From positions 1,116,001-1,180,000 of the forward strand of contig NZ_CP014213.1 in assembly GCF_003268005.1 (NCBI RefSeq): a stretch of DNA of 64,000 bases, written 5' to 3'. How positions within the stretch are numbered: the first letter of the stretch is position 1; the number at the start of each line of letters is the position of its first letter. The notes below the pieces were generated by a model. The model ran no database searches and was not told where the DNA came from. It worked only from the letters and a program-made list of their open reading frames with translations. Of the stretch, positions 2,200-29,772 are shown in pieces. The translations under genes and the position numbers were made by a program. The DNA is from Methanosphaera sp. BMS (lineage in GTDB: Archaea > Methanobacteriota > Methanobacteria > Methanobacteriales > Methanobacteriaceae).

Positions 2200-5100
2200 A
2201 TGGTCAACGTGAATATTTCAATAATAATTTATGTACTGAATAATAAAGAAAAACTATTAGAATGCTTAAATAGTATTTTAATCCAAGAGTATAATAATTT
2301 AGAAGTTATTTGTGTAGTTAAAGATTTAAATTTAGTATCTCCAGAAATAAAAAATTTTTTATCAAACAATGAATCATTTAAGTTAGTTTATAATCCTTCT
2401 TGTGACAGCAAAGATTCTTTGAAAAAAGAAGGTTTTAAATATTCTAAAGGTGAATATGTGATGTTTATAGAACCTAATGAATGGTTAAGTAAAAATTCAT
2501 TAGATACTTTTCATAACATATCCAAGGACAATCATGTTGATTTAATATTATGTGATTGTTTTTTTTATAATGAAAATCATGGATTATTTGATTCAAATAC
2601 ACAGAAAATTCCATACAATAAACTTTTTAATTATTCAGAAGTTAATCATAAATTCATTTTTGAAAACATATCTTACTGTGGAAAATTTATTAAAAAAAGC
2701 ATTATCACCAAATTTCTTAAAATGGGAACTGCCACATTTTCAGAGGTATTTTTAACTTTAGTTGGTTTTTTTGAATCAGAAAACATGTATTATCTGGATA
2801 ATTCCTATTATAATAAACATTTGAATTTAATCAATGAAAATGATATGAGTATATCTTGTGAAAATATTAAAACTGTTCAATATTTAATTGAATACTTTTT
2901 GGATAATACCACAATATTAAAAAGTTATGCGAAAAATATCTTTCAATTAATATTTGAAATAATTAAAAATAGTTTTTTGAAAACTAACGATAGAAAAAAA
3001 ACTTTTGAAGAAATAAAGAATTTATTTGACTATATGCTATCAGTAAACTTAATGGATACATTTAAAGTAAACATCAACAGTGAAAATTTAAAATTCATAT
3101 CTTTTATTGAACACTCATCTAATTATGATAATTACAAAGAAAACATAACTAAACAGGAACATCTCTTAGGTAAAAACTATTTGTTTTCCATAATTGTTAC
3201 AGCACATAATTCTGAAAAAGAAAACATAATCCGATTGTTTAACTCAATTAAAAATCAAAACATCAATTTTGAGAATATTGAATTGATTTTCATAGATGAT
3301 TGTTCTGATTATAAAGAGGGAATATATTTAATTGAATATTTATCAGATATCTATCCAAATGTTAAATATGTTCATTTAGAAAAAAATGGTGGAGTAGGAA
3401 ATGCAAGAAACATCGGAATACGCAAATCAACATCACCTTACATAATGTTTTTAGATGATGATGACTATTATTATAATGATAAATCATGTTCTTTATTATA
3501 TAATATGATTATTAAAGAAGATGTAGATATCGTTGGAGGAAATTATTATGATTTGAATAATAACTCCGACAGAAAAAATAAATGGAAAGCAATTGGTTTA
3601 GAAGATAAAGTAAATAAAATTAATTCGATAAAAGAGAATATGGCTTTTTTTAAAGTAGGTCCTTCCATATGGAGTAGAATATATAAAAAGAACTTTTTGT
3701 TAAAAAATAATCTGAACTTTACAAAATTTGCAGTAGGTGAAGATTATTTATTTTTCCATAAAAGTTTAATTAAAGCAGATGGAATAATATTCATCAATGA
3801 ACCCATAATCTATTATGAAATAAATAATAATAAGAATAGTTTATTCAAATCTATTTCTTTGAATAATTCATATAAAAATTTAAAAGAGTTAATCGAAGTT
3901 TATTCCATATCTTACAACATTTTCAAAGATAATTATCCAGATTATATTCATATTCCTATTTCAAGTATTGGTTACTGGAGTAATAGATTATTTTCATCAA
4001 TGTTGACAGAAGAAGAACTGAAATCATTATGTGAATGTTCAAGAGAATTAGTGAAACTTTTCCTAAATAATAAAAATATCCGACCAAGAAAAGATTATCT
4101 TCCATTTTACAGGTATATTACAAAGAATAAATACAATAAAGCATATGAAGAATATCTTAAATATAACAAGAACAAACCATTGGCTGATTATATCGAAGAT
4201 GAACTATTAAAAAAATCCGACATATTTGACGAAAATAAAGGAACATTCTTATTTTCAATCATAATTCCATTTTTCAATTCAGAAAATTATATCAAAACAT
4301 CAATAATGTCTATAATTAACCAATCATTAAACTTTAAAGAAAATACTGAAATAATTTTAATAAATGATGGCAGTACAGACTTATCTAAAAAAATAGTTGA
4401 AACATTTGTAATCAAATTCCCAAACAATATTAAACTGTTGGAACAGAATCATTCTGGACAGTCCATAGCAAGAAATTATGGGCTTAAATATGCACATGGC
4501 AAATACATAACATTCTTAGATAGTGATGATTATCTATCAAACAATACATTAAAGGAAGTCGATAAATTCTTTAATGAACATGAAACGAATATTATATCGA
4601 TACCTATACATTATTTCGGGAATAAAACTGGAGAACACGAATTAAATTATAAATTTAAAGAAAATAAAGTAATCGATTTAAAAAATAGTTATGATTACCC
4701 TCAATTATCAATACCTTCAACATTTATTCGAAAAGAAGCTTTAAAAGGACATGAATTTTCGGAAAAATTAATGGTTTCTGAAGATTCATTATTCATTAAT
4801 CAAATGTTGATAAACAATCAAAATATTGGATTATTAAATATTCCTACTTATTACTTTAGAATTAAAGAAAATGAGGAAAACAAAGAAATTTCCAATAATT
4901 TCCCATTAGACAAATACTACTTTACTGATAGATTAAATAATTTCCACATATATTTAATTAAGTCTATTCTGGAGAAAGAAAATACTATCCCCTTATTTAT
5001 TCAAAATTCATTGTTGATAGATTTACTAACAATCCTTAAGAAGGAAAAAATAGAATATTTCGAAACTACGAATGACTTGAATTTATTTGAAGAAAAAATA

Positions 5101-8100
5101 AGATATATCTTAAATTACATTGACAGCAACATTATAAAAAACAATAAATTAATAAAAGCAACTAGTTTAAAAAAGTTTTTATTGAAGTTGAAATTCGGTT
5201 CAACATACAACTTTACTAATGATTATTTGATACATGAAACAAATGAAGAAAACATACTGTTAGATAAAATTACTTATCATAAAATCTGGATTGATAACCT
5301 AGAAACAAACTCTGATAATATCATAATTTCATGTTTTTTAAATTCTTCATTTGAAAAAGATTTAATAACATTAGATGCTATTTATATAGACGAAAATGAA
5401 TCTATTAAAACTGTTAAAGGAATTAAATCATATTCCAAATATCCAAATAACAAATATATTTACAAAACATTTGAATACATAAATAGTTTTATTATCACTA
5501 TACCAATAAAAAATATCAAAGATAAGAAGGTTTCAATAGTTGCAAATTATCATAAAGATCGAAATACTGATAATTATGATGAAAACAATACCGTTTCTTA
5601 TAATTTAGAATGCTGTTTACATAAAGATGCAAATATATCTAATGAAAATAACATTTATATAAATAATTCATTGAAAATCAAGTTTGAAGATAATTGTTTT
5701 AAAATTTCAAATGGCTATCTGTTCTCGATAATTATGACTGTTTACAATACAGAAAAATACTTGGAAAAATCCATCGAATCTGTAATAAATCAATCGTTAG
5801 ACTTTGAAAAAAATGTTCAATTAATTTTAGTAAATGATGGAAGTATCGATAACAGTTTAGATATCTTGAAAAGATATAAAGAAGAATATCCTGAGAACAT
5901 CATCGTTTTAGATTTAAGTCATTCAGGACAATCTTTAGCAAGAAATTATGGTCTTAAATTTGCAAAAGGAAAATATATAAACTTTTTAGATAGTGATGAT
6001 TATTTATCAGAGGATACATTAAAAGAAGTTAATAAATTCTTTGATGAACATGAACGTGAAACGGATATCGTCTCTATACCAATCGAATATTTTGAAGCTA
6101 AAACCGGTTCCCATGAATTAAATTATAAATTCAAAGAAAACAAAATAGTTAATTTACTAGAAAATCCCAATTATATACAAAATTCAGTGTCTTCAATATT
6201 TATTAATATAAATTCATTGAAAAACTTAAAATTTAATGAAAAACTAAAATCATCAGAGGATATAAGTTTAATTTATAATATCTTATTAAATAAAAAACAA
6301 TATGGATTACTGAATACTGTTACTTATTATTATAGAAAACGAAATGATAAAAGTGCCATAACCGATAAGTTGATATTTGATAAAAATTATTATTTGGAAC
6401 ATGTGAATAATCTACATTTGAAAATGATTAATCAATGCTTAGAAAAATATAATAGAGTACCTGCATTCATCCAATATGTTATTTTAGATGATATGAAAAA
6501 TCTCATTCGTAACTATGACATGAAAATATTTGATACTGAAAAAAACTATGAAGATTATATAAAAAGTATTAAAACAGTTATGAAAAACATTAATGATAAA
6601 ATTATCAATTATGATGAGGACAATGAAGATCACCTGCTAAGAACTTTTTTACTATTCTTGAAATATGATGAAAAAGTTATTAACACCACTCCTACCACAA
6701 ACAATATTTATTTAAAATGTGGAAATCATACAATTGACAATATTAAAAGACATAAAATATGGATTACTGAGTTAAAATCCATGGAGGATACCCTATTAAT
6801 ATCAGGATTTTTCAATAGCATATTCGATCCAGAGTTTTTCACTGTAGATATTAAAAAAACAAATAAAATAGATGACAGTTGTACTGACATCCACAGTAAT
6901 GGTTATGAAAATAACTTTATTGTTCAAGATACTCATTATTTATCTATTGCATGGCAAAAAATGATTAATTTCAAATATGAAATACCGATTGAAACAAATG
7001 AGAATTCAGAAATAAAGATAAATGTTAACTATCATAAAAATGGTGATTTAAAAGATTATTCACATTCAAATATTATTTCTAACAATATTCAATTGAAAAT
7101 TAAAAATAAACAATATGAAAAATTAATTTATGGTGATTCTTTATATGATAACAATAAAGAAATCAAACTAAACAACAATATAATTTCCATAACACGCAGT
7201 TATAAATTTTCAATAATTATAGCCGTTTATAATACTGAAAAATATCTAGAAGATACCATCTTATCAATTATAAATCAGACAATGGACTTTGAAAAGAATA
7301 TTCAATTAATTTTAGTCAATGATGGCAGTACTGATGATTCTGAAAAAATTCTATTAGAATACCAGAAAAAATATCCTGATAACATAATCGTCATTAGCCA
7401 AGAAAATCAAGGTCAAGCAAATGCACGTAATAATGGACTAAACCATGCAAAAGGAATTTTTATAAACTTCCTAGACAGTGATGATATTTTATCTGAAAAT
7501 ACCTTGAGTGATGTGTATAAATTTTTCATTGAAAATTATTCAAAAACAGATATCGTATCTATCCCAATATATTACTTTGAACGTTTTAGCGGTTCACATG
7601 CATTAAACGATAAATTTGAAAAAACTCGAGTAATAAATTTAAATAAAGAACCGAATGTTTTACAACTTAGTATGTCTTCATCTTTTGTCAAAAAAGAAAG
7701 CATGCTTTCATTCAAATTTCCAACCAATATTGCCGGTTCAGAAGATACTAATGTGTTAAATAAAATATTGCAAAACAAAAAAACATTAGGTGTAGTAAAT
7801 TCAGCAGAATATCAATATAGAAAACGTTTTGATGAAAGTTCATCTTTAGATAACAATAAGTTTAAAAAAGAGTATTATACCCCTCGTTTAAAATATCATT
7901 TCATGGATTTAATAGATTTTTATCTTACAAAAGAGGATAAAATACCAATTTTTATACAATATATGTTAGCATATAATATACAATGGCTATTAAAAGAACC
8001 TGATTTATATCCCTACGAAACTCAAAGTGAAATAAATGAATTTTGGTTCTACCTGAAAAACGTTATTAGATACATTTCACCAAATGCAATAATACACAAT

Positions 8101-9861
8101 AAACATATTAAATCCAAAGAGGTAAAATCTTTCTTCTTACATCTTAAGAACAATAAAATTACTCCAATTATTAAAGAGGATAATGTAATCTTAAAAATCA
8201 ACAAGCTTATCATGGATAACTTTGAAAAACATAAAATGTGGATAGATATTGTAGAAATAAGAAATAATTATTTAAACATTTCTGGTTCATTTACCAGCTT
8301 ATTCAATTATGATTACATTACAATCACTGGTTTAAAAGAATACGACAACGATTATACGGAACTGATTAAAACTAAAAAGGTCAAATATACTGCACGTCCA
8401 GGAATTAGATATTTATCAAATCAATGGCAGTACAGTAACAATTTTGATATGAAAATTCCTTTAAAGCAAAAAGAATCATTTAAACTTAATATATTTGTAA
8501 ATTATCATATTGACGGTAATCCTGAAAACTATGATGAATCCAACTTAATTTCTATTAAACATAAAATAGACTTCAGAAAACATACAAAATTATCAAAAAT
8601 AAGTAATTATAGAATAAATGAAAACTATATAATATATTTTAATGACGATATCTTTTATGTAACCCCATATTCCTATATTGATATGATTAAAAAAGAATTC
8701 AATGTTATTAAAAGACTGAACAAAAATAAATATGAAGGATGTGGCACTGCAACAATTATTAGATTAATCCATTTAATCATGTATCCTATGATGAAACGTT
8801 CAAAACCAATTTATTTATTCATGGACAGAAAAAACCATGCTGATGATAACGCAGAACATTTATTTAAATATGCATTAAAACAAAAAGACAATATTAAAAA
8901 ATATTATATCATAGATAAAAAATCAAATGAAGGAAAAAGAATTTCCAAAATAGGTAAGACTATTCAAATTAATTCTTTTAAGCATAAACTGATATATACA
9001 TTTGCAGACAAAATTATCTCTTCACAACCGGATCACATAAGTATTAATCCATTCTTTATTAAAAAGAATGAAATTGAATTATACGCTGGTTTAGATCAAA
9101 CGAACACTTATTATATCAGACATGGAGTGACAAAAGATAATTTATCCCTTTGGATTAAAAAATTTTCATTAAATTTATCATTAGTGTTAACATCATCCGA
9201 CTTAGAAAGAAATTCATTCCTTGAAGAAGGTTATAACTTCGACGAACATAACGTTCAAGCATTAGGACTTCCTAGGTTTGATAATTTGACAAACAGTACT
9301 CCGAAAAAACAGATATTATTCGCACCTACATGGAGATCAAAATTAAACAATGATGAAAAACTTTTTGTTCATTCAGAGTATTATAATGATTTAAACAATA
9401 TATTAAATGATGATAAATTCCACAAATACCTAAAAGATAACGGATTTAAGTTTATATTTAGACCACATCCTGAATTGATTAAATATATAGAATTAATGAA
9501 AATTAATGAGAACATATATGTTTCTACAGAAGAATCATATCAACAGTTATTCAAAGAAGCTTCCATACTAATAACTGATTATTCTTCGGTATTCTTTGAT
9601 TTTGCATATCTCAAGAAACCAGTAATATATTACCAACCTACTGAAGATTATCATTTTAAAAAAGGATATTTTGATTATGTAACCATGGGTTTTGGACTTG
9701 TTACCAGAAATAAAGAAAAACTATTTGATAAAGTGAAGTTTTATATAAATCATGATTGCAATATGGAATTGGAATATAAGGAAAATGTAGATAAGTTCTT
9801 CAAATACAATGATTCAAATAACTGTCAAAGGGTATATGATTGGATAAAAAATAATAAATAA
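2200..9861 (+). CDS. Giant modular glycosyltransferase: five GT2-like units plus a C-terminal CDP-glycerol glycerophosphotransferase (TagF-like) domain
   Basis: The 2553-residue protein has no signal peptide or obvious membrane segment. GT2-type folds start near residues 3, 328, 683, 1173 and 1667. Units 2-5 keep the GT2 signatures (I(D/N)DGSTD-type strand and FLDSDDYLS, or FLDDDDY in unit 2); unit 1 has lost them (EPNEWLS in place of DSDD). Units 3-5 are each followed by a helical segment and a beta-rich module marked by HK(I/M)W and a short ISGF-like strand, giving a tandem period of about 490 residues. Residues about 2195-2553 form a GPT domain with RHGV (about 2306), APTWRS (2375), RPHPEL (2421) and TDYSSVFFDF (2458), as in teichoic-acid glycerol- or ribitol-phosphate transferases. 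It probably transfers sugars and polyol phosphates to a surface polymer. Donors and acceptor are unknown. Confidence 0.9.
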   Translation: MVNVNISIIIYVLNNKEKLLECLNSILIQEYNNLEVICVVKDLNLVSPEIKNFLSNNESFKLVYNPSCDSKDSLKKEGFKYSKGEYVMFIEPNEWLSKNSLDTFHNISKDNHVDLILCDCFFYNENHGLFDSNTQKIPYNKLFNYSEVNHKFIFENISYCGKFIKKSIITKFLKMGTATFSEVFLTLVGFFESENMYYLDNSYYNKHLNLINENDMSISCENIKTVQYLIEYFLDNTTILKSYAKNIFQLIFEIIKNSFLKTNDRKKTFEEIKNLFDYMLSVNLMDTFKVNINSENLKFISFIEHSSNYDNYKENITKQEHLLGKNYLFSIIVTAHNSEKENIIRLFNSIKNQNINFENIELIFIDDCSDYKEGIYLIEYLSDIYPNVKYVHLEKNGGVGNARNIGIRKSTSPYIMFLDDDDYYYNDKSCSLLYNMIIKEDVDIVGGNYYDLNNNSDRKNKWKAIGLEDKVNKINSIKENMAFFKVGPSIWSRIYKKNFLLKNNLNFTKFAVGEDYLFFHKSLIKADGIIFINEPIIYYEINNNKNSLFKSISLNNSYKNLKELIEVYSISYNIFKDNYPDYIHIPISSIGYWSNRLFSSMLTEEELKSLCECSRELVKLFLNNKNIRPRKDYLPFYRYITKNKYNKAYEEYLKYNKNKPLADYIEDELLKKSDIFDENKGTFLFSIIIPFFNSENYIKTSIMSIINQSLNFKENTEIILINDGSTDLSKKIVETFVIKFPNNIKLLEQNHSGQSIARNYGLKYAHGKYITFLDSDDYLSNNTLKEVDKFFNEHETNIISIPIHYFGNKTGEHELNYKFKENKVIDLKNSYDYPQLSIPSTFIRKEALKGHEFSEKLMVSEDSLFINQMLINNQNIGLLNIPTYYFRIKENEENKEISNNFPLDKYYFTDRLNNFHIYLIKSILEKENTIPLFIQNSLLIDLLTILKKEKIEYFETTNDLNLFEEKIRYILNYIDSNIIKNNKLIKATSLKKFLLKLKFGSTYNFTNDYLIHETNEENILLDKITYHKIWIDNLETNSDNIIISCFLNSSFEKDLITLDAIYIDENESIKTVKGIKSYSKYPNNKYIYKTFEYINSFIITIPIKNIKDKKVSIVANYHKDRNTDNYDENNTVSYNLECCLHKDANISNENNIYINNSLKIKFEDNCFKISNGYLFSIIMTVYNTEKYLEKSIESVINQSLDFEKNVQLILVNDGSIDNSLDILKRYKEEYPENIIVLDLSHSGQSLARNYGLKFAKGKYINFLDSDDYLSEDTLKEVNKFFDEHERETDIVSIPIEYFEAKTGSHELNYKFKENKIVNLLENPNYIQNSVSSIFININSLKNLKFNEKLKSSEDISLIYNILLNKKQYGLLNTVTYYYRKRNDKSAITDKLIFDKNYYLEHVNNLHLKMINQCLEKYNRVPAFIQYVILDDMKNLIRNYDMKIFDTEKNYEDYIKSIKTVMKNINDKIINYDEDNEDHLLRTFLLFLKYDEKVINTTPTTNNIYLKCGNHTIDNIKRHKIWITELKSMEDTLLISGFFNSIFDPEFFTVDIKKTNKIDDSCTDIHSNGYENNFIVQDTHYLSIAWQKMINFKYEIPIETNENSEIKINVNYHKNGDLKDYSHSNIISNNIQLKIKNKQYEKLIYGDSLYDNNKEIKLNNNIISITRSYKFSIIIAVYNTEKYLEDTILSIINQTMDFEKNIQLILVNDGSTDDSEKILLEYQKKYPDNIIVISQENQGQANARNNGLNHAKGIFINFLDSDDILSENTLSDVYKFFIENYSKTDIVSIPIYYFERFSGSHALNDKFEKTRVINLNKEPNVLQLSMSSSFVKKESMLSFKFPTNIAGSEDTNVLNKILQNKKTLGVVNSAEYQYRKRFDESSSLDNNKFKKEYYTPRLKYHFMDLIDFYLTKEDKIPIFIQYMLAYNIQWLLKEPDLYPYETQSEINEFWFYLKNVIRYISPNAIIHNKHIKSKEVKSFFLHLKNNKITPIIKEDNVILKINKLIMDNFEKHKMWIDIVEIRNNYLNISGSFTSLFNYDYITITGLKEYDNDYTELIKTKKVKYTARPGIRYLSNQWQYSNNFDMKIPLKQKESFKLNIFVNYHIDGNPENYDESNLISIKHKIDFRKHTKLSKISNYRINENYIIYFNDDIFYVTPYSYIDMIKKEFNVIKRLNKNKYEGCGTATIIRLIHLIMYPMMKRSKPIYLFMDRKNHADDNAEHLFKYALKQKDNIKKYYIIDKKSNEGKRISKIGKTIQINSFKHKLIYTFADKIISSQPDHISINPFFIKKNEIELYAGLDQTNTYYIRHGVTKDNLSLWIKKFSLNLSLVLTSSDLERNSFLEEGYNFDEHNVQALGLPRFDNLTNSTPKKQILFAPTWRSKLNNDEKLFVHSEYYNDLNNILNDDKFHKYLKDNGFKFIFRPHPELIKYIELMKINENIYVSTEESYQQLFKEASILITDYSSVFFDFAYLKKPVIYYQPTEDYHFKKGYFDYVTMGFGLVTRNKEKLFDKVKFYINHDCNMELEYKENVDKFFKYNDSNNCQRVYDWIKNNK

Positions 9862-10040: not shown

Positions 10041-11102
10041 CTATTTAGTTAACATTTCACAAATTTTATTGGCTACTTTAAACATACCATAATCAGTATA
10101 ATGAGCTGAATCAACCGCCACTAAATCATATTCATCATCATCAAACAATTCCCTTTGATTTAATAATTTAGTATTATCCCCATTTTCAATGGCCTTGTTA
10201 AATGTATTTAAAACAATTTTATCAAATTCATCACACATTGGCCAATAGTTATAACAAGAAGAAGTCATTAAAATAATTAATTTATTTGGATGATATTTTC
10301 TCAATAATTTATAAAATCTTTCATATGACTTATCAAACATTTCTTTATCTGTAGCATTTCGGGTATAATCTATGATAATTGCTTCACAATTCAGTTTTCC
10401 AATCATTCTTGCCATACCAAGTAACCCTTTACAACAATTAGTTACTGATAGATTAATTATGTCTTTATTTAGAGTTCTACTAACTATATTCGGAAAACAA
10501 TTACCTGAACGTGAAGCAGCAGACCCCTGAGTAACACTATTACCATAAAAAATTATGGGCAATTGAGGTTCCGGATATTCTAATGGCTGTATCTGTGAAT
10601 TATTTTCAAAACCTAAAAATATCTGTTCGACAGTATTGTAACTTGGTAAAAAAATACATATTTTTCCATTTGAAGGAACATGTATTTTTTCAGCAAAAGT
10701 AGAATAACCATCTTTTGGTCCAAAAACGGTTTTATGAACATATTTTCCATCTTCAGTAACATGATAAATATCAAAGCCTAAACCGTTCCAATTTAATATC
10801 TTTATAAAACCCCATTTTCTTCTGAGTTTAATTTTTAAGATTACTATTTTTGAATTTGTCTCAAATCTTAAACGATTTCCCATAGATGCATGATGAAAAT
10901 CATTCATTGACTTGGTAACATTTTTTCCATATATTGTTATATCTTCTCGAGTTTTTTTGGGTACTTTACTAAAATTTACAAGAGTATCAGAAAAATTAAC
11001 ATTACCATAAAAGAATTCAGGATGTTCCATCAAATTGATATAAGTTACATTTTCTTCATTAATCTTTTTTAATTTATCATTAATATTTTTAAGATATTCC
11101 AT
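10041..11102 (-). CDS. SGNH/GDSL-family esterase with N-terminal GxDLY-type domain
   Basis: The 353-residue product resembles two-domain SGNH esterases. The N-terminal beta-sandwich carries GLGFDIYHV (about residues 102-110), matching the GxDLY domain. The C-terminal domain has the nucleophile block FYGNSVTQGS (Ser about 188) and the DxxH block AVDSAHYTDYG (Asp about 330, His about 333), so the catalytic triad appears complete. No signal peptide is seen, so it may act inside the cell or leave by a non-classical route. Members of this family remove acyl groups from carbohydrates. The next gene upstream stops one base before this start, so they form an operon with the GT gene starting at 15650. 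Editing acyl substituents on a surface glycan is a reasonable inference. Confidence 0.8.
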   Translation of the reverse strand: MEYLKNINDKLKKINEENVTYINLMEHPEFFYGNVNFSDTLVNFSKVPKKTREDITIYGKNVTKSMNDFHHASMGNRLRFETNSKIVILKIKLRRKWGFIKILNWNGLGFDIYHVTEDGKYVHKTVFGPKDGYSTFAEKIHVPSNGKICIFLPSYNTVEQIFLGFENNSQIQPLEYPEPQLPIIFYGNSVTQGSAASRSGNCFPNIVSRTLNKDIINLSVTNCCKGLLGMARMIGKLNCEAIIIDYTRNATDKEMFDKSYERFYKLLRKYHPNKLIILMTSSCYNYWPMCDEFDKIVLNTFNKAIENGDNTKLLNQRELFDDDEYDLVAVDSAHYTDYGMFKVANKICEMLTK

Positions 11103-18314: not shown

Positions 18315-21300
18315 TTGTATAAAAAGTTTAAGTTTTCAATCATAATTATTTTTAACAATAATGAACAACATTTAAAAAAGGCAATTACTTCCATACTAAA
18401 TCAATCAATGAATTTCAAGAGAAACATTCAATTAATTTTATTTAATAACAACAGTACAGATAATTCTAAGATTATAGCTCTAGATTTTTATGAAAAATAT
18501 CCGAATAATATTCAATATATTGAACAAAATGAATTTGACGAAAAAAAAGCCAAAATATCTGCTTTAAGTTATGTAGACGGTGAATATATAAATTTCTTAA
18601 ACGCAGATGATTTTATCTCCAGAAATTCCCTAGAAAATATATACAATTTATTTAAACAAAATGAAAAAGTGGATATCATATCATTACCTATTACATGTAT
18701 AGGAATAAAAATGGATTTCTCATTATTAAACTATTTTAAAGGAAATTTTATAGACTTAACAGAAACACCCAATATCCCATATTTACATTTTAATTCTTTA
18801 TTTATCAAATCAAATATTATTGAAAAAAGAAATTTACGCAGTGATTTAAATAGTTTCCAAGAGGAGATAATTATTTCAAATTTATTTTTAAATAAACCAT
18901 TAATTGGTTTTGGAAATGGAATTTATTATTTAAGAATTAATTATGACTTAATTAGCAATTGTAAAATGAAATACTTAAATAAATCTTTTTATTATGAAAA
19001 ATTAAATCAATACGAGTCAATTATTAATCATTGCTTATTTACAAAAAATGAGATTCCTCCATTCCTTCAATATATGGTATTATACCACTTACAATACTTA
19101 ATAAAGAAATATAACAATAATCTTTTTGATTCTGAAGATGGATTAAATCAATTCACGAATAAAATAACGTCAATATTAACAAATTTCTCTCAAAAATTAA
19201 TATCAGAAGATGAATACTTAGAGAATAATATCAAAAACTTTTTAATATATCTGAAAAATGATAAAAAATTGGAATATCAACCAATTCAAAACAATGTTTT
19301 AATCAAATCCAACGAATATATCATTGATAAATTGAATAACCACAGAATATGCTTAAATGACTTACAAATTAACAAAGAAGAATTGATTATTAACGGATTT
19401 TTCACTTCAAATTTTCCAAACAATGATATAAACATTTATACAATTATTGATAATGAACGTTATATGATTAAAAAAATAGGTAATTATATCTATAATAATA
19501 ATTCATTAAACGGCAATATTAATTATCTATCTCAAGAATGGAGTTATACCTATGATTTTCAAGCAAATATTCCCATAAAAAAAATTCGTGAATCAGAAGT
19601 ATTTTTCGAACTAGTCTACGATAACCACATTGAATCAGCTGTAATTCCAGAAATAAGTGCTGATAATCAGATTATCAAATCTTTAAATGAAAATACTAAG
19701 GATAAATTAGATTTATATATGTATCTTGATAAAAAGAAACTCTTAGTTTTACCATATACATCAGTTTTAAATAAGAATAAATCATTTAAATTTTCTATTG
19801 TTATGGCCATCAATACAGAAAAATATATTAAAGAAGCATTAAATTCAGTTATTAATCAAAATATTGGCTTTGAAGAAAATGTCCAACTTATTTTGGTAAA
19901 TGATTGCAAAAATAGACTACTTGATTCAATTTTATCCAGTTATAAAAATCAATATCCTGAAAACATTATAACTCTTTCAACTGACAACAAAGGGGTTAGT
20001 TTTGCACGTAATGCTGGATTAATATATGCTGAGGGAGAATACATTAATTTCCTAGATAGTGATGATTATTTATCTGAAAATTGTTTGAATGATGTATACA
20101 AATTTTTTGAAAATAAAAAAACAGAAATAGATGTTATTAGTATCCCCATGGAATATTTTGATCGAGAAGAAAAACCACATGAATTAAATTACAAATATTC
20201 TAAAACAAGAGTTATTAATCTAGATAAAACTCCTAACAATATACAACAATCCATAGCGTCATCATTTATAAAAAAAGAGGTATTAAAAAAGTATTCCTTT
20301 GATGATGAACTCGTTACCTCTGAAGATGCATTAATGATTAACCTGATTCTATTAGAAAAAAGGAAATATGGTGTTGTGGATAATGCAACCTATTATTTTA
20401 GAAGAAGGTTTAGTGAAGATGCAATTACTGATATTGTTAAAGATGATAAAAGATTCTATACTCCTCGACTGGAACATTTCCATAAATATCTGATTGATTA
20501 TTGTACACAGAAATACAAAAAAGTACCCGAGTTCATACAGTTTATGTTGGTTAGTGATTTGGAAGGCATATTCAGCATACCTGAATTTGACATATTTGAT
20601 GATGAAACTGAAAAAGAGGAATTCTGGAGTTATTTTGATTCTCAAGGGTATAACCTTTTCAATTACATATCCGATAAAGCAATTTCAAAAAACAGAAATA
20701 TCAACAGGAATATCAAATCATATTTCAGATACTTAAAACAAGGATCATATGAAATAATAAAAAATAAAAATGACATCGTTGTCATGAAAACAGGAAAGTA
20801 TACCATCGATACACTTAACAAACATAAGATATGGTTTGATATAATTGACTTTAGGAAGGAAAAACTGATAATGTCCGGCCATATGGTTTCAAATTTTGCA
20901 AGTGATTCAATTAAAATCCGATTAGTTAAAGATGGGGTGGATTATCAATATTATGATTGTGAATTTATTGAGTATTCCCAGCCGGATCGTATGAATGTCA
21001 AATATTTAGGTATTGATTGGGTTTATGACTATAATTTTAATGTAACCGTACCTTTAAAAGATATTTATAACGTGAATTTACATTATGAAGTAATATATGA
21101 TGAAAATGATGTTGAAACGATATTCACGCCGGGAATTGGTTTCAGAGTGCCTTCTGGTTTAACGGAATTTAACACGTATTTTGTTAAAGGTTCTAGAATT
21201 ATATTTTATCGATATAAAACAATATTCATTAGACCATATTCCTATAGTAGCATGTTGAAACATGAAAAATATGATATGCGTTTAATTAAGGAAAGTAAAC

Positions 21301-22433
21301 TGGATGGATATTTATATATCTTGTTCATCCGTATGTTATATATGGTTTTATATCCATTCATGAAGAATAAACGCATATGGACGGTTAACGATCGTATAGA
21401 TAATGTGGATGAAAATGGAATGCACCTGTTTAGATATTTGAATAAACAGGATGACGGTATTAAAAAATATTACATTATCAGCAAAGATTGTGAACAGTAC
21501 GATGAACTAAGTAAGGAATTTGACAATCTGTTAATTCACAGATCATTCAAACACAAAATAGTATATCTATTTTCAGAAAAAACAATATCTGCCTTCTTAA
21601 ATGAATCATTCTTTAATCCATTTTGGATTGATGATAATTATGATTACAGAAAACTATATTGTAACCTGATTACTACAGACAGATATTTCTTACAACACGG
21701 CGTAATTTCATGTGACTTGACAAACCATATAAAAAGGTATAAATATAATTTGGCATTGATTGTAACTTCTGCCGATGCCGAACGTCAATCATTCTTTGAT
21801 TTGAAATATAATTATCCTGAAACGGTAGTGCAAGCACTTGGTTTACCTAGATATGATAATTTAACCAGTGATGAAACAAAAAAACAATTAGTCTTTTTAC
21901 CAACTTGGAGATCATATCTAGATAAGGATGAATCATTATTTATTCACTCTGACTATTATCATACAATAAACAGTCTGATTAACAATGATAAGTTACATGA
22001 AATACTGGAAAAATATGATTACGAATTCATATTTAAACCACACCCAGAGCTTATCAAGCACATGGACAAATTTGACAATAAAGGATATTATAAAGATGCA
22101 TCCGAAGTCTCTTTCCAGGACATATTCCGTGAATCATCATTATTAATCAGTGATTTTTCATCGGTAGTATTTGATTTTGTATACTTGAAAAAACCAATAA
22201 TATACTATCAACCTAATGATGATTATCATTTCGATGAAGCCTACTTCGATTATGAAAGCATGGGATTTGGTGAAGTAATTAAAGATGAAAATGAGTTAAT
22301 TGAATTAATAGAACGTTACTTTAAGAAAAACTGTGAAATGGACGTTAAATATAAAGAAAGAGTAGATACCTTCTTCAAATATAACGATAAAAATAATTGT
22401 AAAAGAGTATATGAATGGATTAGGGACAATTAA
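18315..22433 (+). CDS. Two-unit GT2 glycosyltransferase fused to a TagF-like glycerophosphotransferase
   Basis: The start is TTG at 18315, supported by GGGGAG eight bases upstream; the product has 1372 residues. GT2 unit 1 (about residues 5-230) has lost key sites (LFNNNSTDNS, NFLNADDFIS). Unit 2 (about 490-720) keeps FLDSDDYLS, but its first acidic strand reads VNDCKNR, so its activity is uncertain. Beta-rich modules follow each unit (HRIC near 340, HKIW near 835). The C-terminal GPT domain (about 1010-1372) has QHGVISCDL, PTWRSYL, FKPHPEL and SDFSSVVFDF. No membrane segment is seen. It is a close paralogue of the proteins at 22445 and 27136, and lies 11 bases before the former in the same orientation. 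A polyol-phosphate polymerase or linkage enzyme is the likeliest role. Confidence 0.88.
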   Translation: MYKKFKFSIIIIFNNNEQHLKKAITSILNQSMNFKRNIQLILFNNNSTDNSKIIALDFYEKYPNNIQYIEQNEFDEKKAKISALSYVDGEYINFLNADDFISRNSLENIYNLFKQNEKVDIISLPITCIGIKMDFSLLNYFKGNFIDLTETPNIPYLHFNSLFIKSNIIEKRNLRSDLNSFQEEIIISNLFLNKPLIGFGNGIYYLRINYDLISNCKMKYLNKSFYYEKLNQYESIINHCLFTKNEIPPFLQYMVLYHLQYLIKKYNNNLFDSEDGLNQFTNKITSILTNFSQKLISEDEYLENNIKNFLIYLKNDKKLEYQPIQNNVLIKSNEYIIDKLNNHRICLNDLQINKEELIINGFFTSNFPNNDINIYTIIDNERYMIKKIGNYIYNNNSLNGNINYLSQEWSYTYDFQANIPIKKIRESEVFFELVYDNHIESAVIPEISADNQIIKSLNENTKDKLDLYMYLDKKKLLVLPYTSVLNKNKSFKFSIVMAINTEKYIKEALNSVINQNIGFEENVQLILVNDCKNRLLDSILSSYKNQYPENIITLSTDNKGVSFARNAGLIYAEGEYINFLDSDDYLSENCLNDVYKFFENKKTEIDVISIPMEYFDREEKPHELNYKYSKTRVINLDKTPNNIQQSIASSFIKKEVLKKYSFDDELVTSEDALMINLILLEKRKYGVVDNATYYFRRRFSEDAITDIVKDDKRFYTPRLEHFHKYLIDYCTQKYKKVPEFIQFMLVSDLEGIFSIPEFDIFDDETEKEEFWSYFDSQGYNLFNYISDKAISKNRNINRNIKSYFRYLKQGSYEIIKNKNDIVVMKTGKYTIDTLNKHKIWFDIIDFRKEKLIMSGHMVSNFASDSIKIRLVKDGVDYQYYDCEFIEYSQPDRMNVKYLGIDWVYDYNFNVTVPLKDIYNVNLHYEVIYDENDVETIFTPGIGFRVPSGLTEFNTYFVKGSRIIFYRYKTIFIRPYSYSSMLKHEKYDMRLIKESKLDGYLYILFIRMLYMVLYPFMKNKRIWTVNDRIDNVDENGMHLFRYLNKQDDGIKKYYIISKDCEQYDELSKEFDNLLIHRSFKHKIVYLFSEKTISAFLNESFFNPFWIDDNYDYRKLYCNLITTDRYFLQHGVISCDLTNHIKRYKYNLALIVTSADAERQSFFDLKYNYPETVVQALGLPRYDNLTSDETKKQLVFLPTWRSYLDKDESLFIHSDYYHTINSLINNDKLHEILEKYDYEFIFKPHPELIKHMDKFDNKGYYKDASEVSFQDIFRESSLLISDFSSVVFDFVYLKKPIIYYQPNDDYHFDEAYFDYESMGFGEVIKDENELIELIERYFKKNCEMDVKYKERVDTFFKYNDKNNCKRVYEWIRDN

Positions 22434-22444
22434 CAGGTGTTAAT

Positions 22445-25080
22445 ATGGATAATGATAATTATAATGTAATGAATGATTTTAAATTTACGGTTTTCTTACA
22501 GATTAAAACAAATGCAAATTTAAAATATTCCCTTGAATCCATCTTAAATCAAACATTGCCCTTTGAAAAAAATATCCAGATTATAATATTAAATCAGTCA
22601 AACGATAAGAATACTGACAAAACAATATTAGAATATTATAATAGATATCCTTCAAATATTTTATTATATTCGGATACAACATCCCCCATATATGACCTTT
22701 ACAAAAAAACTTCAAACTTATCGAAGGAAAATATTGTGTTTTTATTAATTCAAACGATTACATAGATAAATCAACATTAGAAAATGTATATGATTTTTAT
22801 AAAAAAAATGGAAAATCAATCAATATCGTTACAATCCCATATGTTTACTTTGGTAAATTTAACAAAGATCATGAATTAAATTATAAATTTACAGAAAATA
22901 CAGTATTGGATTTAAAAGAATCACCTAATAATCCCTTATTTTCATTGAATTCCACAATTATACTATCGGAAATATTTAAAAAATTCATTGATTCAAAAAG
23001 TATTGACAACGATTTTATATTGTTAAATTCAATCTTATCCATTGATGAACGATACGGCCTTGTTTCATGTGATAATTATTATAAAAGAAAATCGTATGAT
23101 GATGAAAAAACAATAGACGCTAATAACATTATCAAAGAACTAAATAATATTCAAGAATTTACTACTAAAGAGGATAATAAATCATACAGCTTCTTAAAAT
23201 ATTCATTAATTTATTATATAATGGATTTGATTAGAAATGAAGAGTTAAATAATCTGAAAATAAATGAAACAAATAAAATTTCCAGTGAAATTCAGAATAT
23301 TTTACAAAACATTGACGAGGATTACATTGCAACAAATCCAAATGTTAATTTCCGTTATAAAAGTTTTATCATGTACCTGAAAAATTCTAATCGACAATTA
23401 GAATTATCTGATTCGGAGAATAAATTATATTTAAAAACCGGAACTTTCCAGATAGATGAACTTTCAAATCATAGAATCTGGTTAGACATAGTTGAAATTA
23501 ACAATGATACTCTAAATATTTCCGGCTTATTTAATACCCATTATGATTCAAAATTTATTGAAATACGAGCTATTATTGAGAGTCATGACAAAAAAACCGT
23601 TAATACTTGCAGACAAATATTCTATCCTCAAAATGAACGAAAAGATGTGCACTATTTATCCATCCCTTGGATGTATAGATATAATTTTAACGTAGATATT
23701 CCTATTGAAAATTTACATAAAACAAGAATATCCTTCGAAATTCTTTATTCGGATAATGAAGTTGAATATTCCTTTAACCCATTAATCGAGTTTAGATTAA
23801 CTACTTATTTATCTGAATTAGGTATTTATTATGTAAAAGAACCTTACATATTGTTGCATGATAGTAAATCCATTTCAATAATAAAATATTCTTTCTTTAA
23901 GATGTTCAAATTAGAACTTAGAAATATTCTTAGAATATTTAGGTCTAATGAAAAACATAAAATTAACGCTTGTTTAATGAGAACATTTTATTTGATGATA
24001 TATCCCTTTATGAAAAAGAAAGAAATATGGCTAATAAATGATCGTATTGATAACGCTGATGATAATGCAAAACACTTATTCAAATACGCTTGTAAACAAA
24101 AAGATGCTATCGATAAATATTTTATAATCGATAAAGATACTGATGATTATAATGAACTAAAAAAAATAAGTCCAAATATCCTTAAATACAGATCTTTCAA
24201 ACATAAAATATTATATCTGTTTTCATCAAAAAGAATTTCTTCATTTTTAAATGAAGCCTTTTTCAATCCTTACTATAATCAAAAGGAATATGATGATAGA
24301 AAATTATATAATAACTTAGTCGTCTCACCACGTTATTTCTTACAACATGGCGTGATTTCATGTGATTTAACAAAGCATGTTAAACGATATAATCATAATT
24401 TACGATTGATAGTTACATCTGCAGACCCTGAAAGACAATCATTTTATGATTTGGATTATAACTATCCTCCAGGTGTTGTTCAAGCGTTGGGTCTTCCTCG
24501 GTATGATAATTTGAAGCTCTTGGATAAGAAGAGAATAGTGTTGTTTATTCCTTCTTGGAGGTCTTATTTGGATAAGAATGAGGAGTTATTGATTAACTCG
24601 GATTATTTTAAATCTATTGTTTCTTTAATAGAAAATAAAGAATTCCGGGAATTATTGGATAAAACGGGGTATAAATTTGTTTTCAAGCCCCATCCTGAAT
24701 TGGTTAAACACGTCAGTTTGTTTGAAAATGAATCGGTAATAATAGATGTGGACTCTTCGTTCCAACAGTTATTCGGTGAATCAAGCATTTTAATCAGTGA
24801 TTTTTCATCAGTAATATTTGATTTTGCGTATCTGAAAAAGCCAGTGATTTATTATCAACCTAATGATGATTATCATTATGAAAAAGGTTACTTTGATTAT
24901 GAGACTATGGGATTTGGTAAAGTAGTAACAGACGAAAATAAATTAATAGAATTAATAAGCAATTATATTGACAATGACTGTGAAATGGAAACTGAATATC
25001 AAAATAGAGTAGATAAATTTTTCAAGTACCATGATCAAGATAATTCAAAAAGAGTCTACAAATGGATTAAAGATAATTGA
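22445..25080 (+). pseudogene. GT2-glycerophosphotransferase gene with a frameshift in the GT2 part
   Basis: The reading frame opens at 22445 (AGGTG ribosome site), runs 106 codons and stops at 22765. The homologous sequence continues in another frame from about 22745 to 25080. The break is at a run of five T at 22739-22743; adding one T restores an INSNDYIDKSTLEN segment and gives 878 residues, the same length as the paralogue at 27136-29772. The GT2 domain also lacks its acidic motifs (ILNQSNDKN, INSNDY), so it was probably inactive already. The beta module and the GPT domain (about residues 525-878, with QHGVISCDL, PSWRSYL, FKPHPEL, SDFSSVIFDF) look intact. The frameshift could be real decay, phase variation at the T run, or a base-calling error. 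Confidence 0.75.
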
Positions 25081-25995: not shown

Positions 25996-26781
25996 ATGGA
26001 TATAGTAAAAAAAGATAATGATAACAACTTAATAATAGGTGAAGAACCAGAATTGATAAAAAGTTCAATCACATTCAACGGTAAAAATAATCGTTTAATC
26101 TGTGAAGAAGGAGTTGCTTTAAAAAATTCCAAAATAAAATTTTCAGGTGATAATTCCATAATTTATTTAGGTAAACCTAGAGGTAATTTACAATTACACG
26201 TCCCCATATATAGTAATTCCGTTTTATTTATTGATAAATTTACAAAAACTAATGGATTATTACATTTACTTTTATCTGAAGGAAAAAATATCATAATGGG
26301 AAAACATTGTTTGTTCTCATTTGACATATGGTTTAGATTAGCAGATCCTCATTTAATCTACAGTTCCAATAACAAAAAGAGAATAAACTTTAGTAAGAGT
26401 ATATACTTTGGAGATCATATATGGGTAGGTCAGGATGTATTAATTATGAAAGGAACAAAAGTAGGTTCAGGAAGTATTATTGGAGCTAAATCTCTCATAT
26501 CAAACAAAGAAATTAAATCAAATAGTATTTGGGCAGGAAATCCAGCTAAAGAAATTAACAGCGATATTTTTTGGGACATAGAACATGTACATAACTATAA
26601 AAAGGAAGATACGGAAAAATCATTATATTTTGATGATGACCATTGGATTTATGAAGAAGATGGTTTTACCTTAAATATGGATGATATTGAAAACAATTTA
26701 CAAAATATGAATGTTGATGAAAAAGTAGATTACTTAATTAAACTAAGTAACATTAATATTAAAAATCGTTTTTATATATAA
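25996..26781 (+). CDS. Hexapeptide-repeat (left-handed beta-helix) acyltransferase
   Basis: The 261-residue protein shows a turn-rich region ending in a clear hexapeptide block, GDHIWVGQDVLIMKGTKVG, followed by SGSIIGAKSLISN and WAGNPAKEI (about residues 140-190), typical of acetyl- and succinyltransferases that modify sugars. The His of GDHIWVG is in the position expected for the catalytic base. Residues 195-261 are an acidic helical tail. Ribosome site GAGG is at 25984. In this island it probably O-acylates a surface-glycan sugar, complementing the SGNH esterase gene at 10041. The substrate is unknown. Confidence 0.82.
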   Translation: MDIVKKDNDNNLIIGEEPELIKSSITFNGKNNRLICEEGVALKNSKIKFSGDNSIIYLGKPRGNLQLHVPIYSNSVLFIDKFTKTNGLLHLLLSEGKNIIMGKHCLFSFDIWFRLADPHLIYSSNNKKRINFSKSIYFGDHIWVGQDVLIMKGTKVGSGSIIGAKSLISNKEIKSNSIWAGNPAKEINSDIFWDIEHVHNYKKEDTEKSLYFDDDHWIYEEDGFTLNMDDIENNLQNMNVDEKVDYLIKLSNINIKNRFYI

Positions 26782-27135: not shown

Positions 27136-29772
27136 TTAGCTATCATTTAATATCCACTCATATACTCTTTTACAATTGTTTTTATCAGTATATTTAAAAA
27201 ATATATCTACCCTTTTTATATACTTTTCATCCATTTGACAGTTTCTATCGATTATTTCCTGAATTTCAACAATCAATTTATCTTCACTCTTTATGACTGA
27301 ACCAAATCCATGTACCTCATATTTAAAGTATCCTTCCTTATAATGGTAGTCATCATCTTTTTGATAGTATATTACTGGTTTTTTAAGATATGCGAAATCA
27401 AAGTATACTGATGAGTAATCGGTAATTAAAATTGATGAATCTCTGAACAATTCTTGATAAGATTCGTTTTTAGATATTTTAACATTTTCAGGTACTTCAA
27501 GTAAGTTGATATAATCATTCAGTTCAGGATGTGGCTTAAACACTAAATTATATCCACTTGATTCAAGTAAGTTACCTAATTTTTCACTATTTAAGAAGCT
27601 TTTAAGTGTTTGATAATACTGTGACTGCAAGAATTTTTCCTCGTTAGTTAGTTCAAGTCTCCATGTGGGTGCAAATAGAATTTGTTTTTTTGTATCATTA
27701 GAAGTTAGATTATCAAATCGACAGAACCCTAATGCTTGGATTACATGACTGTCAAAATTATATCCCTCAGCTAAAAATGATTCTCTCTCCATATCAGATA
27801 CACAATCAATTAATGATAAATTCTTATCGTATTTTTTTATAAACTCCGATACATCATCCTTTGTTACTCCATGTTGTAAGAAGTATCTGTATGAAGTTAT
27901 AAGTCCACTGTAAAGTGATGGTGTGAAGTAATGGAATGGATTTATGAAGTTTTCATTTACATAAGATGATATGACCTTTTCAGCAAACAGGTAAAGTATT
28001 TCATGTTTAAATGATCCGAATGCCACTATATTTTTATTTATTTTTTTCATCTGATTATAACTTGGACTATCCTTATTTACAATGAAATATTTCTTTACTC
28101 CATCATCAATATCACAGGAGTATTCAAAGAGTGCCTTTGCATTGTCATCAGCAAAATCAGGCCTATCTGAGTATAGCCATATTCTTTTATTTTTCATGAA
28201 TAGGTAAAGTAAAAAATAAATTATGTGAGTAAATATTGCAATACGATAATATGGTTCCTTGTCGTAGTTTATTCGTTTAATGTTACTTATTTCGTAGCGT
28301 AACATTGATTTAAATGAATATGGTAATACATTAAATTGATTGTTTTTAAATAGTATGATTTTCGAATCTTTTACAAAATATGCACTTGATGTAGATAAGC
28401 CACAACTTTCTCTAAAACTTATATGAGGTATTGATGTAAATTGATTTTGTCCATCATCATATTCAATTTTAAATGATAACTTATCATTTAATGAAACGGA
28501 AATATTGATATCGAAGTTGTAGTTGTACTTCCAGTTTATTCCTAGGTATTTTAGTGTCTGACGTTTAGGATTATTGTACTCAACATACTTTGCATCATAC
28601 TCCTTAACTTCACCATTGGATTCACAAATCACCTTTACTTTCATATTCTTGTTTTCAAAAGATAAATCTATATTACCACTGAAATTTATACACCCTTTTC
28701 TATATTCGACTATATCTAACCATAAAACAACTTCAGAGAAGTCTTCAATATTATAATTCCCAGATTTAACTATTAATGAATTTTCAGATTTGACTGTTGT
28801 AATATCACGATTATTTTTTAGATATACAAAAAATGGCAGAACATGTTCGTCGATGTATTTGTTATCTGTGATACAATCCATGTTTATATAAGTAAGTACT
28901 TTATTTAGTACATTCCAGAATTCATCTAACTCTTCATCATTATCAAAGACTTCAAGAGTGTCCAATTTTAATAACCATTGTAAATCATAAGCAAATAGGT
29001 ATTGGATAAACTTCGGAATATTTCCTTCTTTTTTATTGCAGTAATCAGCCAATTCAATGTAGAAATTCTTTAAACGATTCGTGAAATACTTTTTGTTTTC
29101 CTTCATCATGTCAACCGTACTGCTACCATTTAATCTCTGCCGGTAAAAGTATTCTGCATCATTTACGACACCATACCTCTTTTTATCCAAAAATATTTTA
29201 TTGATAACTAAAGCATCTTCTAGATTAACCAGTTTAGTACTGAATTCATAGTCTTTAATCGAATCATATTTAATAAATGCTGAAGAAGAAGATAATTGAG
29301 GCATATTAGGTTCAATTTCTAAATCTATAACTCTTGTAGTTTTAAATTTATCATTTAATCTGTGTGGTAGGTTAACCCTTTCAAATAAGGTCATTGGAAT
29401 AGCAACCACATCCACTTCATTGAAATGATTTTCAAAAAAGTCATATACTACTTCCAAAGTATTGGTCGATATGTAATCATCACTATCCAAGAAATTTACA
29501 TATTTTCCCTTAGCATACTTGAGTCCATAGTTTCGTGCTGTAGATTGTCCCTGATTTGATTGTGATAGTAATATAATATTTTCAGGATATTTTTCTTGAT
29601 AATCTTTTGCAATATTTAATGAATTATCATTACTTCCATCATCAACAAGTATTAACTGAACATTCTCCTTAAAATTTAATGATTGATTTAAGACTGAGTC
29701 TATGCATTCTGAAAGATAATCTTCAACATTATATACCGCTATTATTATAGAAAATTTATACTGATACTCCAT
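27136..29772 (-). CDS. GT2 glycosyltransferase fused to a TagF-like glycerophosphotransferase
   Basis: The 878-residue protein is the smallest intact example of the locus architecture. Its GT2 domain (about residues 5-230) has intact VDDGSNDNS and FLDSDDYIS. Then come a helical segment (PKFIQYLFAYDLQWLLK), a beta-rich module (about 340-480) and a GPT domain (about 529-878) with QHGVTKDDVS, APTWRLEL, FKPHPEL and TDYSSVYFDF. Both activities look intact. It is transcribed opposite to its two paralogues at 18315 and 22445 and divergently from the GT2 gene at 29885. Expected role: cytoplasmic sugar plus polyol-phosphate transfer in assembly of a surface polymer; the donor is not shown by the sequence. 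Confidence 0.9.
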   Translation of the reverse strand: MEYQYKFSIIIAVYNVEDYLSECIDSVLNQSLNFKENVQLILVDDGSNDNSLNIAKDYQEKYPENIILLSQSNQGQSTARNYGLKYAKGKYVNFLDSDDYISTNTLEVVYDFFENHFNEVDVVAIPMTLFERVNLPHRLNDKFKTTRVIDLEIEPNMPQLSSSSAFIKYDSIKDYEFSTKLVNLEDALVINKIFLDKKRYGVVNDAEYFYRQRLNGSSTVDMMKENKKYFTNRLKNFYIELADYCNKKEGNIPKFIQYLFAYDLQWLLKLDTLEVFDNDEELDEFWNVLNKVLTYINMDCITDNKYIDEHVLPFFVYLKNNRDITTVKSENSLIVKSGNYNIEDFSEVVLWLDIVEYRKGCINFSGNIDLSFENKNMKVKVICESNGEVKEYDAKYVEYNNPKRQTLKYLGINWKYNYNFDINISVSLNDKLSFKIEYDDGQNQFTSIPHISFRESCGLSTSSAYFVKDSKIILFKNNQFNVLPYSFKSMLRYEISNIKRINYDKEPYYRIAIFTHIIYFLLYLFMKNKRIWLYSDRPDFADDNAKALFEYSCDIDDGVKKYFIVNKDSPSYNQMKKINKNIVAFGSFKHEILYLFAEKVISSYVNENFINPFHYFTPSLYSGLITSYRYFLQHGVTKDDVSEFIKKYDKNLSLIDCVSDMERESFLAEGYNFDSHVIQALGFCRFDNLTSNDTKKQILFAPTWRLELTNEEKFLQSQYYQTLKSFLNSEKLGNLLESSGYNLVFKPHPELNDYINLLEVPENVKISKNESYQELFRDSSILITDYSSVYFDFAYLKKPVIYYQKDDDYHYKEGYFKYEVHGFGSVIKSEDKLIVEIQEIIDRNCQMDEKYIKRVDIFFKYTDKNNCKRVYEWILNDS

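What the first reader, a model, noticed from the sequence alone, without database searches (positions are those of the whole stretch)
2200..29772. Locus of modular GT2 + beta-module + TagF-like megaproteins in an archaeon
Four paralogous genes (2553, 1372, ~878 frameshifted and 878 codons) each end in a CDP-glycerol glycerophosphotransferase-like domain with HG, (A/P)(T/S)WR, (R/K)PHPEL and (T/S)D(Y/F)SSV motifs, and begin with one to five GT2-like units. TagF-type domains define teichoic-acid synthesis in Gram-positive bacteria. A cluster of such fusions beside SGNH and acyltransferase genes in a methanogen suggests a phosphodiester-linked, teichoic-acid-like surface polymer. The motifs are seen; the polymer is inferred.
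Basis: partly seen in the sequence, partly recalled or inferred. Interest (0 to 1): 0.8.

Follow-up and report, generated by a model that had tools for sequence, protein, structure and literature searches.

The report
Archaeal wall phosphopolymer polymerase gene cluster
A gut methanogen carries four long enzymes of a type bacteria use to build phosphate-linked surface sugars; the genes are real and common in this archaeal family, but sequence clues point to a sugar-phosphate chain rather than a true teichoic acid.

Summary
Four genes each end in a full PF04464 (TagF-type) domain, and these are the only four in this complete 2.87 Mb genome. An AlphaFold model of the 878-residue protein (pLDDT 93.5) matches the wall-teichoic-acid glycosyltransferases TarS, RmlT and TarP over the GT2 and beta-module part, and TarL and the capsule polymerase Cps3D at the C-terminus. 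GT2+TagF fusion is not new: the crystallised S. epidermidis TagF has it. Leahy et al. 2010 already proposed teichoic-acid-like wall polymers in M. ruminantium, citing high wall phosphate. The full-length family occurs in about half of sampled Methanobacteriaceae and in none of 13 other genomes of the phylum.

The polyol reading is weakened. The catalytic motif is QHG or RHG, never WHG, and QHG is reported for hexose-phosphate transferases. The genome has no TagD, TarI or TagA. Against this, 20 of 75 related loci carry a CDP-polyol synthase nearby. Best reading: modular polymerases for a phosphodiester-linked surface glycan, more likely sugar-1-phosphate than glycerol or ribitol phosphate. First GT2 units are degenerate, and gene 3 is frameshifted with a decayed GT2. 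A phosphonate gene cluster lies about 10 kb upstream of the window.

The parts
2200..9861 (+). 2553-aa polymerase A: five GT2-like units (unit 1 degenerate), beta-modules after units 3, 4 and 5, TagF-type domain at about 8788-9846 (motif RHG)
11994..15650 (-). 1218-aa DUF6270 + GT2 (degenerate) + beta + GT2 (intact) + beta protein without a TagF domain; same GT2/beta cassettes
11103..11978 (-). 291-aa protein, no Pfam hit; AlphaFold model (pLDDT 80.9) is a jelly-roll + GDSL/SGNH (family 2 carbohydrate esterase-like) fold
10041..11102 (-). 353-aa GxDLY + Lipase_GDSL_3 (SGNH) hydrolase, probable O-acyl esterase or transferase of the glycan; adjacent to the 291-aa gene in relatives too
18315..22433 (+). 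1372-aa polymerase B: GT2 unit 1 degenerate, GT2 unit 2 intact, two beta-modules, TagF-type domain at about 21345-22421 (QHG)
22445..25080 (+). Polymerase C, frameshifted near 22735-22750 inside its GT2 unit, whose DXD and donor-site residues are also degenerate; TagF-type domain intact at about 24004-25068 (QHG)
25996..26781 (+). 261-aa hexapeptide-repeat acyltransferase-like protein (weak Pfam match, below cut-off)
27136..29772 (-). 878-aa polymerase D: one intact GT2 unit (about residues 1-320), beta-module (about 325-484), TagF-type domain at about 27148-28209 (QHG); AlphaFold pLDDT 93.5
29885..30928 (+). 347-aa stand-alone GT2, motifs intact; divergently placed next to the 878-aa gene, as in a related Methanosphaera genome
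31104..32564 (+). 486-aa weak GT2-like protein, conserved next to these genes in related genomes

Best explanation
The locus encodes cytoplasmic, single-chain modular polymerases for a phosphodiester-linked surface glycan. In each chain the intact GT2 (inverting GT-A) unit or units add sugars from nucleotide sugars, helped by TarS-like carbohydrate-binding beta-modules. The C-terminal TagF-type GT-B domain then joins the repeat to the growing chain by transferring a phosphorylated residue from a nucleotide donor: the first His acts as base and the HPEL His binds the pyrophosphate. The transferred residue is more likely a hexose-1-phosphate (UDP-sugar donor), giving a poly(oligosaccharide phosphate) as in the CslB, Cps12B, Cps1B and Ccs2 capsule polymerases, than glycerol- or ribitol-phosphate as in teichoic acid. 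The adjacent SGNH and hexapeptide proteins would tune O-acylation. Shown here: domain identity, fold, conserved catalytic residues, distribution, absence of known CDP-polyol synthases. Inferred: activity, donor, acceptor, export and attachment.
For: PF04464 at 143-170 bits in all four and nowhere else in the genome. Both catalytic-site histidines are invariant across 62 full-length relatives (H634 and H748). AF2 model pLDDT 93.5 with Foldseek matches to TarS over 542 columns, RmlT, TarP, TarL and Cps3D. TarS's extra domain is described as stacked carbohydrate-binding modules (PMC5156392). The S. epidermidis TagF chain matches the family profile over both its GT2 N-terminus and its TagF C-terminus. 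QHG/RHG/GHG/KHG in 118 of 118 domains, while two separate TagF-type proteins in a TagD-bearing archaeal genome have WHG. QHG is reported for hexose-phosphate transferases and WHG for Gro3P polymerases (PMC11666461). GT-A/TagF capsule polymerases make sugar-phosphate polymers (PMC5974469). No TagD, TarI/IspD or TagA in this 99.96% complete genome. In the 120-genome family sample, 10 of 55 carriers lack both TagD-like and TarI-like enzymes.
Against: In 75 named related loci, 10 have a TagD-like and 10 a TarI-like gene within about 10 kb. In two archaeal loci (L043, L045) a TagD-like fusion gene directly follows the GT2-TagF gene, and only about half of the 20 loci show a WHG-type TagF or LicD that would otherwise use the CDP-polyol. 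The WHG/QHG rule rests on one paper's figure legend and few enzymes, all bacterial. S. epidermidis TagF also has a GT2 N-terminus yet uses CDP-glycerol. I found no biochemical data for any archaeal member.
Confidence: 0.5

Rival explanations
1. True teichoic-acid-like polymer: the TagF domain transfers glycerol- or ribitol-phosphate from a CDP-polyol and the GT2 units decorate or alternate with it. The CDP-polyol comes from an enzyme not recognised here.
For: The closest solved structure to the C-terminus by sequence is TarL, a ribitol-phosphate polymerase. The GT2+beta part is closest in fold to poly-ribitol-phosphate decorators. TagD-like or TarI-like genes lie near 20 of 75 related genes, and in four Methanosphaera genomes a TarI-like gene is on the same contig within about 10 kb. 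Family-wide, carriers more often have TarI-like (44 of 55 vs 29 of 65) and TagD-like genes (25 of 55 vs 14 of 65), though relatedness is not controlled. M. ruminantium walls have high phosphate (PMC2812497).
Against: No TagD, TarI or TagA in this complete genome; the motif is QHG/RHG, not WHG.
Confidence: 0.3
2. The TagF-type domain uses a CMP-activated phosphonate, CMP-2-hydroxyethylphosphonate made by the PepM cluster upstream, so the polymer is phosphonate-linked. The free hydroxyl of hydroxyethylphosphonate could be extended like glycerol.
For: PepM fused to a cytidylyltransferase-like domain, phosphonopyruvate decarboxylase, an iron alcohol dehydrogenase and an NTP transferase, with galU alongside, sit at genome 1,102,007-1,107,324, about 10 kb upstream of the window. 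It is the only apparently non-housekeeping cytidylyltransferase found in the genome by PF01467.
Against: PepM is in only 3 of 12 genus carriers and shows no association with the polymerases (p = 0.62 in the genus, 0.35 in the family). Housekeeping genes (ValRS, SAHase, SAM synthetase) lie between. The genome has a LicD gene elsewhere that is a more usual user of such donors.
Confidence: 0.05
3. The proteins are decorating enzymes or degenerate relics rather than polymerases: some members modify an existing glycan (for example pseudomurein-linked or glycoprotein glycans) with a single sugar or sugar-phosphate.
For: Degenerate first GT2 units and a frameshifted gene 3 show loss of some modules. 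No dedicated exporter or initiating enzyme was seen among the annotated genes of the window.
Against: All four TagF domains, and at least one GT2 in three of the four genes, keep catalytic motifs. Multi-copy clusters with counterparts are conserved in related genomes.
Confidence: 0.15

Closest known systems
TagF-like capsule polymerases of GT-A/TagF architecture (CslB, Cps12B, Cps1B, Ccs2; PMC5974469)
   Same: N-terminal GT-A glycosyltransferase joined to a C-terminal TagF-type phosphotransferase, DXD and two-His active sites, very long ORFs; QHG is the motif reported for TagF-like hexose-phosphate transferases (PMC11666461).
   Different: Those are bacterial and often carry TPR domains; here there are TarS-like beta-modules, up to five GT2 units, several paralogues in one locus, and an archaeal host. 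Sequence identity was not measured against them here.
Staphylococcus epidermidis TagF (PDB 3L7I-3L7M)
   Same: The same order of a GT2 domain followed by a TagF domain, matched by one profile over both parts.
   Different: The profile match leaves out most of the beta-module, the motif is WHG according to PMC11666461, and it uses CDP-glycerol.
TarS / RmlT / TarP wall-teichoic-acid glycosyltransferases
   Same: GT-A catalytic domain; in TarS a linker and beta carbohydrate-binding modules as well.
   Different: They are stand-alone decorators and are not fused to a phosphotransferase.
Methanobrevibacter ruminantium teichoic-acid homologues (e.g. mru_1079; PMC2812497, PMC5816558)
   Same: Same archaeal family and same annotated function class; the organism's wall phosphate was reported as high.
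   Different: Different genus; in the passages read, domain structure, motif class and donor supply were not analysed.

Membership tests
TagF/TarL (PF04464) superfamily domain | PF04464 match above the curated cut-off | tested here: met
   143-170 bits vs 22.1
TagF/TarL (PF04464) superfamily domain | Two catalytic histidines (TagF H444 and H584 equivalents) | tested here: met
   HG and (K/R)PHPEL His invariant in the four domains and in 62 full-length relatives. The H584 equivalent is aligned directly to 3L7J; the H444 equivalence is by motif order.
TagF/TarL (PF04464) superfamily domain | GT-B fold related to TagF/TarL | tested here: met
   AF2 model pLDDT 93.5; Foldseek hits TarL 8va1 E 5.8e-19 and Cps3D 8qoy E 1.7e-14
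CDP-glycerol (Gro3P) polymerase in the strict sense | WHG motif at the catalytic base | tested here: not met
   QHG in three and RHG in one; 0 of 118 domains have WHG; rule from PMC11666461
Wall teichoic acid biosynthesis pathway | CDP-glycerol or CDP-ribitol synthase (TagD / TarI) | tested here: not met
   PF01467 hits are RibL-, NadM- and CoaD-like proteins (by sequence and gene context, names from memory) and a PepM fusion; the PF01128 hit is weak and CobY-like; no TIGR01518 hit over cut-off
Wall teichoic acid biosynthesis pathway | TagA/TarA committed-step glycosyltransferase (PF03808) | tested here: not met
   no match in the genome
Wall teichoic acid biosynthesis pathway | Polymer of polyol phosphates in the cell wall | not testable with these tools
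   needs wall chemistry
TagF-like capsule polymerase, GT-A/TagF architecture | N-terminal GT-A with DXD plus C-terminal TagF-type domain in one chain | tested here: met
TagF-like capsule polymerase, GT-A/TagF architecture | Hexose-1-phosphate transfer from a UDP-sugar and polymer formation | not testable with these tools
   motif class is consistent only
TarS/TarP-type GT2 | GT-A fold with DXD and catalytic Asp, plus C-terminal carbohydrate-binding beta-modules | tested here: met
   fold match over 542 columns to 5tz8; DSDD and ED motifs in intact units

The most novel reading that the evidence does not exclude
In this organism the TagF-type domains polymerise a phosphonate-containing surface glycan, using CMP-2-hydroxyethylphosphonate from the nearby PepM cluster as chain-linking donor: a carbon-phosphorus analogue of teichoic acid in an archaeon.
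Probability: 0.05. Interest if true: 0.85.

Novelty: new member of a known kind. Interest (0 to 1): 0.42.

Why it matters
A pseudomurein-walled rumen methanogen has long been reported to hold high, unexplained wall phosphate. This family gives specific enzymes to test for it, narrows the chemistry to two main alternatives (sugar-1-phosphate or polyol-phosphate) that a single purified enzyme could settle, and shows a bacterial-type wall-polymer machine confined, within the sampled Methanobacteriota, to the family Methanobacteriaceae. Surface polymers of rumen methanogens bear on vaccine and phage-lysin approaches to methane control.

Tried and rejected
1) PepM/phosphonate as the general donor: rejected as a rule because PepM is absent from 9 of 12 genus carriers; kept as a low-probability rival for this genome.
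2) PF01467 hits as hidden TagD: read as RibL-, NadM- and CoaD-like housekeeping enzymes and a PepM fusion.
3) PF01128 hit as TarI: weak, and the sequence looks like CobY.
4) Recent local duplication: rejected, because the four TagF domains fall in at least three separate lineages, each with its own counterparts in other Methanosphaera genomes (quick tree).
5) Co-occurrence of CDP-polyol synthases as proof of donor: the family-level association is significant, but it is confounded by relatedness and by WHG-type TagF enzymes in the same genomes, so it was not taken as decisive. In the genus alone it is not significant.
6) GT2+TagF fusion as novel: rejected after the profile matched both halves of S. 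epidermidis TagF.
8) Literature searches for phosphonate biosynthesis in Methanobrevibacter found nothing, and for teichoic acid with Methanosphaera stadtmanae nothing relevant beyond PMC2812497.
Full report
**What is there.** The window is G000:C1:1116001-1180000 of a one-contig, 2.87 Mb, 99.96% complete genome. The host is therefore most likely a Methanosphaera; a match to the strain Methanosphaera sp. BMS is from memory only. PF04464 is found four times in the genome, all here. The region also holds a fifth GT2/beta cassette protein (11994-15650, -) with a DUF6270 head, a GxDLY/GDSL hydrolase, a 291-aa protein whose model is a GDSL/CE2-like fold, a hexapeptide protein, a stand-alone GT2 and a 486-aa GT2-like protein.

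**Catalytic state.** Aligning all GT2 units shows DXD, donor-site and ED residues intact or nearly so in units 2-5 of the 2553-aa protein, unit 2 of the 1372-aa protein, the 878-aa protein, unit 2 of the 1218-aa protein and the 347-aa protein. They are lost in the first unit of the 2553-, 1372- and 1218-aa proteins and in gene 3 (unit 4 was partly clipped in that alignment, and its missing residues were read from the translation). Gene 3 also has a frameshift near 22735-22750 in a T-run. An intact relative with 64% identity in the TagF domain exists in Methanosphaera sp. RGIG2546 (L017). All four TagF domains keep both active-site histidines.

**Fold.** With 62 full-length relatives (A2), AlphaFold2 gives pLDDT 93.5 for the 878-aa protein. 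Foldseek's best matches are TarS (E 2.8e-23, 542 columns), RmlT and TarP, with TarL and the A. pleuropneumoniae serotype 3 capsule polymerase among the others. TarS has a GT-A domain, a linker and stacked carbohydrate-binding modules (PMC5156392), which offers an explanation of the 'beta-module'. A profile search shows that crystallised S. epidermidis TagF matches the family over its GT2 N-terminus and its TagF C-terminus, so the fusion order itself is known.

**Distribution and origin.** Full-length matches (E <= 1e-200) occur in 68 of 137 Methanobacteriaceae genomes by my count of rows, and in 0 of 13 other genomes of the phylum. Named relatives are Methanobrevibacter, Methanosphaera and mostly gut Bacillota. 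In a quick tree of 118 TagF domains the archaeal sequences form one clade (SH-aLRT 99), which also holds one 'Bacillales' MAG contig (L008) nearly identical to an archaeal one and probably misbinned. The other rows are Bacillota. This fits one transfer from Bacillota followed by expansion, but the rows were chosen by similarity to archaeal queries and the root is a midpoint, so direction is inferred. The four window domains lie in at least three lineages with counterparts in other Methanosphaera genomes.

**Donor.** Two lines argue against a polyol. First, the catalytic motif is QHG in 106, RHG in 7, GHG in 4 and KHG in 1 of 118 domains, and never WHG; two other TagF-type proteins from a TagD-bearing archaeal genome do have WHG. 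[quoted passage not shown] Second, the genome has no TagD, TarI or TagA, and 7 of 12 genus carriers, including near-complete genomes G002 and G029, lack both TagD and TarI. Architecture adds weak support: characterised GT-A/TagF capsule polymerases make poly(oligosaccharide phosphate) (PMC5974469), but S. epidermidis TagF shares the order and uses CDP-glycerol. The main counter-evidence is neighbourhood: 10 TagD-like and 10 TarI-like genes within about 10 kb of 75 related genes, two of them directly downstream in archaeal loci. About half of these loci also hold a WHG-type TagF or LicD that could be the true user. I therefore put sugar-1-phosphate ahead of polyol-phosphate, without excluding the latter.

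**Prior knowledge.** Leahy et al. 2010 (PMC2812497) reported that M. ruminantium walls have phosphate at levels comparable to teichoic-acid-bearing walls, noted teichoic-acid gene homologues and suggested unidentified wall glycopolymers. A later transcriptome lists mru_1079 under teichoic acid biosynthesis (PMC5816558). What is added here is the TarS-like/TagF composition, the decayed units, the QHG class, the missing CDP-polyol supply and the distribution.

**Upstream phosphonate cluster.** About 10 kb before the window lie PepM fused to a cytidylyltransferase-like domain (425 bits, cut-off 320), phosphonopyruvate decarboxylase (466 bits, cut-off 312), an Fe-ADH related to the phosphonate PsrA family (below cut-off) and an NTP transferase. 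This predicts a hydroxyethylphosphonate-type product. It is not correlated with the polymerases across genomes, so a shared function is only a low-probability idea.

Noticed in passing
L086:4926-9324 (genome 1,102,926-1,107,324), about 10 kb upstream of the window: Phosphonate biosynthesis cluster (Fe-ADH, phosphonopyruvate decarboxylase, cytidylyltransferase-PepM fusion, NTP transferase), with galU alongside. PepM is above cut-off in 22 of 120 sampled Methanobacteriaceae; a search for papers on it found none.
   Followed up: partly
window 16357-17841 and L086:12262-13746: Two near-identical DDE transposase genes about 22 kb apart bracket the SAM synthetase gene, the 2553-aa gene and the DUF6270-GT2 gene.
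   Followed up: no
window 59978-61191 (-): A sodium:dicarboxylate symporter (PF00375) is split into two adjacent ORFs, matching profile positions 5-193 and 204-385, as if frameshifted.
   Followed up: no
several Methanobacteriaceae genomes, e.g. G064:C4, G070:C14, G100:C2, G115:C9: PepM lies 2-6 kb from an IspD/TarI-like cytidylyltransferase gene in about a dozen genomes, so those IspD-like enzymes may activate phosphonates rather than ribitol.
   Followed up: no
L097:656-1981, L043, L045: TagD-like cytidylyltransferase fused to a GFO_IDH_MocA oxidoreductase in Methanobrevibacter relatives; in L097 and L099 LicD-like genes lie beside it.
   Followed up: partly
L106:452-2760, L108:17284-19001: NTP transferase-choline kinase fusion plus TarI-like gene beside the GT2-TagF cluster in Methanosphaera relatives, recalling the pneumococcal lic/tarI arrangement (the comparison is from memory).
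   Followed up: no
L008 (CAMOWA010000022.1, labelled Bacillales): Its TagF domain is nearly identical to that of an archaeal contig (L005), so the contig is probably misbinned.
   Followed up: no
window 46749-58377 (-): 1807-aa adhesin-like protein (52954-58377) with Big_3_5 and beta-helix matches, and sugar-nucleotide genes at 46749-49791 (dTDP-sugar epimerase, sugar-nucleotide dehydratase, GT4).
   Followed up: no
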